The notes under the pieces are model-generated. The model was not told where the DNA came from. It saw nothing but the letters and a program-made list of their open reading frames with translations, and ran no database searches. From Bacteroidales bacterium (lineage in GTDB: Bacteria; Bacteroidota; Bacteroidia; Bacteroidales; P3), in NCBI GenBank assembly GCA_016281475.1, contig JAEEIS010000248.1:1-17156 (forward strand): DNA of 17,156 bases, read 5' to 3'. Shown piece after piece: positions 14,690-16,884 of the stretch. The translations under genes were made by a program, and so were the position numbers. Positions within the stretch are counted from its first letter, which is position 1. Every line of letters begins with the position of its first letter.

Positions 14690-14719
14690 ATTTCAATTTT
14701 CAATTTTCAATTTTCAATT
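14690..14719. repeat. heptamer repeat (CAATTTT) between divergent promoters
   Basis: CAATTTT units begin at 14694, 14701, 14708 and 14715. The tract fills the space between the minus-strand -7 box (14668-14675) and the plus-strand -7 box (14729-14736). Confidence 0.8.
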
Positions 14720-14728
14720 TTTTTTATG

Positions 14729-14736
14729 TATCTTTG
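14729..14736 (+). promoter_or_regulatory. -7 promoter element for the leader-peptide-lipoprotein transcript
   Basis: TATCTTTG is a perfect TAnnTTTG. No TTTG is found about 20 bp upstream, where the heptamer tract lies. Transcription would start near 14743, leaving a leader of about 338 nt before the ATG at 15081. Confidence 0.6.
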
Positions 14737-14742
14737 CATCGT

Positions 14743-15080
14743 CAATCACCCGAACCCTTTGGCGGGTAAGCGGGTGGGCGACAGGACATAACAAAAAGAC
14801 GCTGAAACGGCGTTTTATCTGCGGCGTACGAATCTCGCAAATTCAAATCCAACCGCACGATAAGACAAAGTCGGCGCCTATTGGTGTGATATATACATTT
14901 CTTGTATATTGTCACAGCGTGGGCTCGGCATTGTTTATCCTCGGTTGGAAGGCATGCGAGAGCCTCGTACGCGGGATAAACGATGAGTTTAGATACCCGC
15001 GCTTCTTTTTTATATGCCCCTTGATTAACAAACTTTTTCTGGTGCAGGTATCCGCCAGCAACAAAAACTCTAACAAAACA
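14743..15080 (+). promoter_or_regulatory. long structured 5' leader RNA
   Basis: No convincing gene fills these 338 bases, but several helices can be drawn. AAGACGC (14796-14802) pairs with GCGTTTT (14810-14816), one G-U pair, followed by ATCT. A 10-bp hairpin with a small internal loop joins 14886-14896 to 14904-14915: GTGA with TCAC, ATATAC with GTATAT. The stretch 14933-15011 holds the alternative pairings described separately. The frame of the following peptide is open back to 14631, but it crosses the repeat tract and promoter, so I read the region as untranslated. Confidence 0.6.
14933..15011 (+). terminator. putative attenuator with competing antiterminator helix
   Basis: Terminator form: CGCGGG (14970-14975) with CCCGCG (14996-15001), plus inner AAAC (14978-14981) with GTTT (14987-14990), followed by the T-rich run 15003-15011. 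Competing form: GTTTATCC (14933-14940) with GGATAAAC (14974-14981), enclosing a small AGGC/GCCT hairpin (14950-14965). Both forms need 14974-14981, so they exclude each other. It lies 70 nt before the peptide start. Signal and in vivo function are not known. Confidence 0.55.
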
Positions 15081-15251
15081 ATGAAAGAGAATTTGAACCG
15101 CAAACGGGAGTACGACACTCCTATGGTAGAACTGATTGAGGCCCGTGTCGAAAAGGGGTTCCAACCGAGTGGCACCAGCCCCATCATTGGAGAAGGAACA
15201 GGTGAGGCAGTTACTGAGACTGGCTCTGCAGACAATGCATTATTCACTTAA
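15081..15251 (+). CDS. 56-residue YxxP-type small protein upstream of surface lipoprotein
   Basis: The protein starts MKENLNRKREYDTPMVELIE, continues ARVEKGFQPSGTSPIIGEG and ends in SADNALFT. The pattern basic N-terminus, Y-x-x-P-x-VE, E, then GFxxSG and a Gly/Ser/Thr/Glu-rich tail resembles short unnamed Bacteroidales proteins often placed before fimbrillin-like or secreted proteins. This comes from memory and was not searched. There is no signal peptide, no Cys and no double-Gly cleavage site. The ATG at 15081 follows an A-rich stretch (aactctaacaaaaca). The stop lies 16 nt before the lipoprotein start, so both are surely on one transcript behind the structured leader. A signalling, precursor or regulatory role is possible but not shown. 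Confidence 0.72.
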   Translation: MKENLNRKREYDTPMVELIEARVEKGFQPSGTSPIIGEGTGEAVTETGSADNALFT

Positions 15252-15267: not shown

Positions 15268-16884
15268 ATGAAGAAGATTACACTTTTGGGAGTGGTTTTG
15301 GCCACGATTGTCTCGGTTGCGACTGTGTCGTGCCAGAAGGACAAAATAACCATCACGGAGTTCACCGCCACGATGGAGAACTGCAACGACGAGAACGGAA
15401 AGGTGATGCAGGATGGCAACGTGCTGCGCTGGACCGACGGCGACCAGATTGCTGTCTGGGGTACTGACGGGATGGGTATCTACACCACCCACAACACGGG
15501 GACGTATGTCACCACGTTCACCTTTACCGACGGCGAAGACCCCGGCGACCCCAACTACACCGCCATCTATCCCGCCAGTTGGGCACAACGGCAGGCAATA
15601 GTGTTCCTACCTCCTGTACAGACCAGCCATGACGGACAGCTGGAAACATTCCCAATGATGGCAAAGTCCAGTACCAGCGAACTGGTGTTCAAGAATCTGT
15701 GTGGAATTCTCCGGCTGCGGCTCCAAGCCAGCGGCAAGAGCATCACGGGTATTGAGGTAGTTGCCAATCAAAACCTTTGGGGCTCGTACCGCATCGACTA
15801 CAACAGTGGCAATCCCATATTGAGCCATTACACCAATGGTAGCAACCAGCTATTGCTCTCCATCGCTACACCGCAAAGCATCTCTATTCAGGCAAAGGAT
15901 TTCTACATTGCCCTGCCTCCCGCAACCTACGGCGAGGGCTTCACCATCAGAATCTATGCCAGCGACGGCAGCGTATGTACAAAGACAATCACCGAGGGAC
16001 ATAGCTTCACCATCGTGCGTAATGGTATCTTCACCATTACGCTGAACAACGACAATTTACAATTCGAACCCAATGCGGGATTGCTGAGCGGGGAGTTCTC
16101 AGTAAGTCCGACTCGGAAGGTGCGTTTCTCACAGGGCAATCTCATGTACACTGGTTTTGGCACTCATGCAGTAGCAACGGGCGGCACAGCCGAAGGCACG
16201 TGGATGTTTGGTGACGGGTGGAATAATAATGAAGGCGATGTCTATTCTTCGAGGTGGATAGGTGTGTTTGCTTGGGGAACGAGCGGCTGGAACAGTGGCG
16301 CGGCCAAGTATATGCCCTATCAAGCACATGCTGACGCTGATTCTTATAGCTATATACCTGGAGGAGATGTTAGTAACAGTCTGATAGGACCTTATGCGTA
16401 TGCCGACTGGGGCGTGTACAACGCCATTTTCAATGGTGGTAACCAACCTGGGCTGTGGCGCACATTGTCGGCAGAAGAATGGGACTATCTGCTCAACCAA
16501 CGACCAGGACATTCGGTGAAATGGGGTGTTGCTGAAGCTGGAGGATGGGATCTTAGTGGACTGGTAATCCTGCCTGATAGATTTAACCTTCCCGAAGGTC
16601 TTATTTTTAACGAAGGACTAGGACTTGAAGGTGAGTTTAGTTTAAACAGTTATAGCATTGAACAATGGGCTCAGATGGAAGCCGCAGGTGCTGTAATTTT
16701 ATTAGTAAGGTGGCAATATGGAGATGGAAGATATTGGACGACGACTGCTGCTAGCGATCTTAATGATTGGGGAGAACTAGGTTCGTATGTACTCTGTGTC
16801 GCAGGCGATTATGTAGGAATTACCAACACTGGCAATTCTAGACACTGGGGCGAAGCCGTCCGCTTGGTCAGAGACGTTCAATAA
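15268..16884 (+). CDS. fimbrillin-like surface lipoprotein with FISUMP-like C-terminal domain
   Basis: This 538-residue lipoprotein has signal peptide MKKITLLGVVLATIVSVATVSC (Cys22). Residues about 25-265 match the fimbrillin-like pattern of Bacteroidales: FTATMENCNDENGK, LRWTDGDQIAVWG, YTAIYPAS, the LPPVQ block and SELVFKNLCGILRLRLQ. Residues about 275-538 resemble the FISUMP-like repeats of outer-surface proteins: FSVSPTRKVRFSQGNL, WIGVFAWGTSGW, YADWGVYNAI, GLWRTLSAEEWDYLLNQR, WAQMEAAGAV and GEAVRLVRDV at the end. The frame is open upstream to 15136, but only ATG 15268 gives a proper lipoprotein signal. An adhesin or surface-structure role is inferred. Codon use shifts to A/T-rich in the C-terminal part from about 16200. 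Confidence 0.85.
   Translation: MKKITLLGVVLATIVSVATVSCQKDKITITEFTATMENCNDENGKVMQDGNVLRWTDGDQIAVWGTDGMGIYTTHNTGTYVTTFTFTDGEDPGDPNYTAIYPASWAQRQAIVFLPPVQTSHDGQLETFPMMAKSSTSELVFKNLCGILRLRLQASGKSITGIEVVANQNLWGSYRIDYNSGNPILSHYTNGSNQLLLSIATPQSISIQAKDFYIALPPATYGEGFTIRIYASDGSVCTKTITEGHSFTIVRNGIFTITLNNDNLQFEPNAGLLSGEFSVSPTRKVRFSQGNLMYTGFGTHAVATGGTAEGTWMFGDGWNNNEGDVYSSRWIGVFAWGTSGWNSGAAKYMPYQAHADADSYSYIPGGDVSNSLIGPYAYADWGVYNAIFNGGNQPGLWRTLSAEEWDYLLNQRPGHSVKWGVAEAGGWDLSGLVILPDRFNLPEGLIFNEGLGLEGEFSLNSYSIEQWAQMEAAGAVILLVRWQYGDGRYWTTTAASDLNDWGELGSYVLCVAGDYVGITNTGNSRHWGEAVRLVRDVQ

What the first reader, a model, noticed from the sequence alone, without database searches (positions are those of the whole stretch)
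14933..15011. Leader with mutually exclusive antiterminator and terminator helices ahead of a small peptide and surface lipoprotein
GTTTATCC (14933-14940) is a perfect complement of GGATAAAC (14974-14981). The same bases 14974-14981 are needed for the CGCGGG/CCCGCG terminator-like stem (14970-15001), which is followed by a T-rich run. This is the geometry of an attenuator or riboswitch. It lies in a 338-nt untranslated leader behind a perfect -7 promoter and controls genes for a 56-aa peptide and an adhesin-like lipoprotein. No riboswitch class I know fits.
Basis: partly seen in the sequence, partly recalled or inferred. Interest (0 to 1): 0.8.

Follow-up and report, generated by a model that had tools for sequence, protein, structure and literature searches.

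The report
Bistable leader RNA of gut Bacteroidales
The stretch is one copy of a large, knotted, apparently undescribed RNA found at the start of many different messages in gut bacteria of the order Bacteroidales; it can fold in mutually exclusive ways, so it is probably a genetic switch for surface and exported proteins, but what flips it is unknown.

Summary
Alone, the 8-nt complement is no better than chance (P 0.21). But the leader is one copy of a ~240-nt RNA family: 86 of 190 genomes of one gut Bacteroidales family, 70 of 393 sampled over the order, 57 of 80 in the genus of a Bacteroides MAG. No Rfam family matches. Nearly all examined near copies have a promoter-like site upstream and a same-strand ORF downstream; the genes are diverse, with exported proteins over-represented.

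Corrections: the near-universal partner of CCCGCG is GCGTGGG (helix E, 14917-14923), and T is missing in 35 of 128 distant-set rows. Which fold means ON is open: a U-run follows either stem, and in about a third of testable near copies the same strand could mask the start codon.

Best reading: a new class of riboswitch-like or protein-sensing leader; switching and signal are untested.

The parts
14729..14736 (+). promoter-like TATCTTTG (TAnnTTTG)
   Evidence: a TAnnTTTG within 260 nt upstream in 113 of 115 near copies
14740..14783 (+). 5' hairpin (GTC..GAC, CACCCG/CGGGTG) before the core
   Evidence: by eye; not tested statistically
14787..14798 (+). P0, 5' strand (pairs with the U-run strand)
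   Evidence: cognate duplex better than non-cognate in 90 of 116, but not for the window's own copy (-7.3 vs -8.4); paired in the window's MFE fold
14798..14804 (+). helix G, 5' strand (with 14872-14878)
   Evidence: 90.2% paired in the distant set; 18 both-sided changes vs at most 5 in slid controls
14815..14819 (+). helix K, 5' strand (with 14859-14863)
   Evidence: 78-81% paired; not better than one slid control (9 vs 9)
14824..14831 (+). helix A, 5' strand (with 14965-14972), hypervariable in sequence
14833..14839 (+). helix B, 5' strand (with 14955-14961), in the loop of a GAAT/ATTC hairpin
   Evidence: 98.6% and 99.3% paired
14848..14855 (+). helix C, 5' strand (with 14942-14949), hypervariable in sequence
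   Evidence: 93.8% paired in near copies; 42% in the distant set, where it aligns poorly
14859..14868 (+). helix D', 5' strand: competes with D for 14931-14939
   Evidence: 98.0% and 86.2% paired
14872..14878 (+). helix G, 3' strand
14885..14916 (+). hairpin F
   Evidence: 74-90% paired per helix piece
14917..14923 (+). helix E, 5' strand GCGTGGG (with 14996-15002)
   Evidence: 99.8% and 98.7% paired
   Evidence: 99.9% and 93.7% paired
14942..14949 (+). helix C, 3' strand
14955..14961 (+). helix B, 3' strand
14965..14972 (+). helix A, 3' strand
   Evidence: 88.1% vs 87.8% shuffled in near copies; 79.6% vs 74.8%, with covariation, in the distant set
14996..15002 (+). CCCGCGC: 3' strand of E and of T
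15003..15016 (+). U-run and ATATG: terminator tail and 3' strand of P0
   Evidence: at least 6 T in the 10 nt after E in 116 of 116 near copies and 121 of 128 distant-set rows
15081..15251 (+). ORF, 56-aa peptide
   Evidence: similar peptides follow other copies
15268..16884 (+). ORF, 538 aa, lipoprotein-like N-terminus by eye

Best explanation
A cis-acting leader RNA of a new class. Core: closing helix P0; arm 1 (G, K), arm 2 (F) and arm 3 (E and D); the loop of arm 1 pairs with the loop of arm 3 through helices A, B and C, so the whole is a kissing-loop knot. During transcription the nested arm A>B>C>D' can form first, and GCGGG can fold into T before the U-run. Once 14973-14983 is made it can pair with 14931-14941, replacing D' and T by D and E (the knotted fold). 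A signal that stabilises or blocks the knotted fold sets expression of the next gene, by termination at the U-run and, in a subset of copies, by freeing or occupying the U-run strand that can pair with the start-codon region. Shown: the family, its place in leaders, the helices and their mutual exclusion. Inferred: folding order, switching in cells, readout. Unknown: the signal, and which fold is ON.
For: Family and distribution. Leader position: promoter-like site in 113 of 115 near copies and a same-strand ORF start within 350 nt in 112 of 115, median gap 69 nt; 112 and 130 of 136 distant copies. Structure: 52 pairs, 93.9% paired vs 80.1% shuffled, 34 pairs with both-sided changes, covariation 0.426 vs at most 0.096 slid; distant set, 58 pairs, 83.1% vs 74.6%, 49 pairs with both-sided changes, 0.355 vs at most 0.125 slid. 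Exclusive yet conserved: D, D', T. Both-sided changes on an element tree: T 18, D' 10, D 29, E 16, against at most 3, 3, 7 and 1 in slid controls. At 14939 a C-to-U change is kept in D as U-G (26 of 74) but matched by a change on the other side in D' (A-U, 14). In 15 rows the pair 14975/14996 is A-U, good for T and D (14939/14975 U-A), leaving only G-U in E. Nested folding makes A, B, C and D' before D. U-run kept. P0 cognate better in 90 of 116; start-region pairing over 3 kcal/mol better than non-cognate in 34 of 105.
Against: T shows next to no covariation in the near family and is absent in 35 of 128 distant-set rows, so termination through T cannot be the general readout. For D' in near copies the number of pairs and pair types with both-sided changes does not exceed shuffles (494 and 484 of 500 reach it); only the cell counts and score do. 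D' is weaker in Butyricimonas and some Bacteroides copies. D', T and K share columns with A, D and E, so part of their signal may be inherited; K is no better than one slid control. E with D also puts a stem before the U-run. Start-region pairing beats non-cognate in only 61 of 105 copies; for the window's peptide start it is -9.0 against a mean of -7.3 for other starts, 27% at least as strong. The window's own P0 is not better than non-cognate. Downstream genes show no single pathway. No RNA or protein data.
Confidence: 0.66

Rival explanations
1. A static structured leader: the knot stabilises the mRNA or its 5' end, and D' and T are by-products of overlapping constraints. No switching.
For: D, E and B are nearly invariably paired while T is missing in 35 of 128 rows; D', T and K overlap columns of A, D and E; K is no better than a slid control.
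Against: D' and T carry changes matched on their own partner where D or E keep only a wobble pair; both exceed slid controls; the U-run is kept.
Confidence: 0.2
2. A target of a NusG paralog or other elongation factor (UpxY or LoaP type), or an RNA-only antiterminator, acting on RNA polymerase rather than through a terminator switch.
For: Three of 110 scanned distant copies directly precede NusG-domain genes; UpxY proteins prevent premature termination in untranslated capsule leaders (passages of PMC7315117).
Against: Most copies precede other genes; no partner tested; a fixed U-run after a stem is not needed for this.
Confidence: 0.2
3. A stand-alone non-coding RNA that ends at the U-run, with the gene downstream incidental or reached by readthrough.
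For: Promoter-like site, compact fold, terminator-like end.
Against: A same-strand ORF starts a median of 69 nt further on in 112 of 115 near copies; in some copies the 3' strand is complementary to the start region.
Confidence: 0.08
4. A mobile-element RNA or a self-cleaving or self-splicing ribozyme spread over the genome.
For: Several copies per genome in front of unrelated genes; complex knot.
Against: Constant place between promoter-like site and ORF; no hit in plasmid records with two queries, one partial match in phage records. Ends, empty sites and cleavage were not tested.
Confidence: 0.05

Closest known systems
Riboswitches with a closing helix and kissing hairpin loops (purine riboswitch type; recalled)
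   Same: closing helix, arms whose loops pair, a 3' strand shared with an expression platform, mutually exclusive folds
   Different: much larger, loop-loop contact of about 20 bp instead of a few, no known ligand, genes of no single pathway, no Rfam match
Capsule-locus leaders of Bacteroides controlled by UpxY antiterminators (PMC7315117, passages)
   Same: Bacteroidales, untranslated leaders with premature termination; three distant copies precede NusG-domain genes
   Different: found in front of many other genes; no UpxY link shown for this window
EAR and LoaP-type leader RNAs (recalled)
   Same: structured leader RNA acting on elongation is conceivable
   Different: other phylum, other fold, no partner tested
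Bacteroidales-1, Bacteroides-1, Bacteroid-trp and 6S-flavo RNAs (Table 1 of PMC2864571, passages)
   Same: structured RNAs of Bacteroidetes found by comparative genomics
   Different: no Rfam model reaches its gathering score over the element; Bacteroides-2 of that table bears no Rfam number and was not compared

Membership tests
Known Rfam RNA classes (release 15) | match at gathering score | tested here: not met
   window and 20 loci: no family over the element (the two hits, a tRNA and an abiF RNA, lie elsewhere); sub-threshold matches at E 0.65 or more, far below their cut-offs
Riboswitch | mutually exclusive conserved folds in a leader | tested here: met
   T only across clades (not)
Riboswitch | direct binding of a small ligand without protein | not testable with these tools
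   needs in-line probing or calorimetry
Riboswitch | downstream genes related by one metabolite | tested here: inconclusive
   diverse genes; signal-peptide-like N-termini in 128 of 188 vs 259 of 996 background ORFs by a home-made rule
Transcription attenuator | terminator stem plus U-run excluded by an alternative helix | tested here: inconclusive
   U-run kept; T is excluded by D but missing in 35 of 128 rows; E also precedes the U-run; no 3'-end data
Leader-peptide attenuator | conserved short ORF inside the leader ahead of the helices | tested here: inconclusive
   alignments show indels of all lengths and hypervariable helices, against a conserved frame through the core; the 5' part of the leader was not scanned systematically
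UpxY-controlled capsule leader | located ahead of an upxY gene | tested here: not met
   not for this window; NusG domain in 3 of 110 downstream ORFs scanned in the distant set

The most novel reading that the evidence does not exclude
A very widespread, undescribed riboswitch class of the gut: a ~240-nt kissing-loop aptamer, often in several copies per genome across Bacteroidales, that senses a global signal (a nucleotide messenger, or envelope or phage stress) and switches adhesins, lipoproteins, capsule regulators and defence genes together by strand exchange among helices D', D, E and T.
Probability: 0.42. Interest if true: 0.93.

Novelty: new variant of a known kind. Interest (0 to 1): 0.85.

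Why it matters
A large, strongly covarying RNA carried by many Bacteroidales, among them Segatella copri, Butyricimonas synergistica and most sampled genomes of the genus of a Bacteroides MAG, has no Rfam match and was not described in the papers I searched. If it switches, it would be a shared post-initiation control over surface and exported proteins of dominant gut bacteria, and the search for its ligand or protein partner can start from defined sequences and point mutations.

Tried and rejected
Own genome of the window: not held. Exact 22- and 23-nt patterns of the near family in IMG/VR: none; a 17-nt core pattern gave 5 contigs, 3 confirmed by the model. Phage and plasmid records: no match with the window's element; none in plasmids with an S. 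copri copy; one unannotated faecal phage record, 69% covered at 76%, with a copy from the Bacteroides set.

Known riboswitch: rejected by Rfam. T as the main conserved stem: given up for E, although T regained support across clades. Nested folding cannot show D, because D needs the knot. A hairpin of GACGTTG with CAACGTTT competes with helix G and was left open. A ribozyme and a mobile element were judged from context only.

Literature: listings. Of PMC2864571, PMC7315117, PMC7366714 and PMC10994844 I saw passages; of PMC8040213 the abstract and section list. None of what I saw describes this element; no supplements were read, so a listing there is not excluded.

Rows dropped: the 2 fragments of L201 among 122 profile hits, then 4 identical copies, leaving 116; one search counts 115 distinct matched stretches. 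42 of 116 left out of A2 (87% identity or more to a chosen one). Of 136 distinct distant matches 9 weak or fragmentary ones were left out, 128 were aligned, and A5 holds 127 of these plus the window (L311 left out). 110 of 130 distant downstream ORFs were scanned. In one search the start used for the window was that of the longer ORF; one search tests the peptide start.

Full report
What is there. The leader lies between a TAnnTTTG promoter-like site (14729-14736) and the 56-aa ORF at 15081. The 8-nt complement alone is not remarkable (P 0.21 within 60 nt), but 14780-15020 folds 7.3 standard deviations below shuffles.

A family of RNAs. No genome is held for the window, so I used genomes of its nearest ClpX relatives. 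A DNA search in four of them gave long matches, 70-82% identical, in front of unrelated genes in three; the fourth, G001, had only matches of under 30 nt. Of 190 genomes of one family, 86 matched at E 1e-3 or better. From 122 profile hits in 121 loci I kept 116 distinct copies. A covariance model of 74 of them (R1) matched 70 of 393 genomes drawn evenly over the order, 29 of 50 genomes reached through named loci (for example Segatella copri Indica 5 copies, Butyricimonas synergistica 7, a Prevotellaceae MAG 13), 37 of 60 in the genus of S. copri and 57 of 80 in the genus of a Bacteroides MAG. In one search the four Flavobacteriales genomes and, for instance, Prevotella falsenii and Alloprevotella tannerae had none. 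In 26 further genomes, Flavobacteriales, unplaced Bacteroidetes and some MAGs labelled Bacteroidales, 2 matched weakly: G357 (1.8e-5), which also belongs to the order set, and Aequorivita antarctica (1.3e-4, part of the model only). The genome sets overlap in part and the large searches scored only some candidates per genome, so these are lower bounds. Rfam has no match at gathering score over the element in the window or in 20 loci.

Structure. Mutual information on 116 copies and, separately, on 128 distant copies plus the window aligned afresh recovers the helices A, B, C, D, F and G and a D'-like pairing; E is nearly invariant and was taken from complementarity and then counted. On 74 near copies A-F (52 pairs) are 93.9% paired against 80.1% shuffled, 34 pairs change on both sides, covariation 0.426 against at most 0.096 slid. 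On 128 rows of the distant set A, B, C, D, E, G, K and P0 (58 pairs) are 83.1% against 74.6%, 49 pairs change on both sides, 0.355 against at most 0.125 slid. A and C are hypervariable in sequence yet paired; C aligns poorly between clades (42%). Read together: closing helix P0, arm G-K, arm F and arm E-D, the loop of G-K (5' strands of A, B, C) pairing with the loop of D (their 3' strands). The 5' strand of B sits in a small hairpin loop.

Exclusive folds. D' exceeds its shuffles in cells and score in both sets, but in the near set not in the number of pairs or pair types. T hardly differs from shuffles in the near set (88.1 vs 87.8; score 0.049 vs 0.045) but does in the distant set (0.214 vs 0.142; slides at most 0.12). 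On an element tree both-sided changes are T 18, D' 10, D 29, E 16, with at most 3, 3, 7 and 1 slid; K has 9, equalled by one slid control. In 35 of 128 rows, Butyricimonas and many copies of the Bacteroides set among them, fewer than 4 of 6 T pairs form while E stays at 6.8 of 7.

How it may work. In folding without knots, the arm A>B>C>D' forms once transcribed (mean probabilities 0.72-0.97) and T reaches 0.30-0.44. Helix energies favour E+D (-19.4) over T (-5.7), ignoring the cost of the knot. A U-run follows in 116 of 116 near copies and 121 of 128 distant-set rows. P0 pairs that strand with the start of the element: cognate better in 90 of 116, though not for the window's own copy. In 34 of 105 near copies the same strand pairs with the start-codon region over 3 kcal/mol better than with other copies' start regions, many of them BspA-type genes; overall 61 of 105 are better. 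The window's peptide start gives -9.0, within the range of other starts (27% at least as strong; P 0.04 against shuffles). I infer a switch between a knotted fold and a nested fold, read out by termination and, in some copies, by start-codon access. Which is ON is open.

What it controls. Of 112 near downstream ORFs, 22 match LRR_5 (BspA type), 15 an InlB-repeat domain, 2 each SPFH and D12 methyltransferase, 1 each DarT, PP2C and LytTR (25 of 45 families shown); one is SIR2-like. Of 110 distant ones, 8 match LRR_5, 3 NusG, 2 each protein kinase, MBOAT and glycosyltransferase, 1 each AbiH and C5 methylase (25 of 87 families shown). By a home-made signal-peptide rule 128 of 188 downstream proteins of 150 aa or more look exported, against 259 of 996 background ORFs. 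No single pathway emerges, which points to a global signal or a protein partner.

Verdict. A real, apparently new, widely distributed structured leader RNA (near certain), bistable (likely), switching in cells (probable, untested), signal unknown.

Noticed in passing
L083 613-760: A promoter and 5' hairpin like those of the element, without the core, directly precede a small gene pair that looks by eye like an antitoxin and a RelE-like protein; the full element follows about 830 nt downstream.
   Followed up: no
window 15039-15058 and the stretch between U-run and start codon of a subset of copies: A further hairpin with a GGTATCC-, GGGAATC- or GGGGAGTC-like loop.
   Followed up: partly
window 15081-15251; L115, L119, L120, L151, L155, L172, L183: Peptides of about 45-60 aa that share a VERGF-like stretch follow the element in several genomes, in the window ahead of the lipoprotein.
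   Followed up: no
window 14690-14745: The AT-rich promoter approach matches many places in the four related genomes, mostly without the element.
   Followed up: no
L366, L367, L370; L371 (MT835917.1): Copies on IMG/VR contigs and one partial match on an unannotated faecal phage record; whether these are truly viral was not tested.
   Followed up: partly
L280 937-973: An abiF RNA (RF03085) lies about 260 nt from the element in S. copri, on the other strand.
   Followed up: no
L266, L284, L297: Elements directly ahead of NusG-domain (UpxY-like) genes, a possible link to capsule antitermination; the L284 match is weak (30.9 bits).
   Followed up: partly
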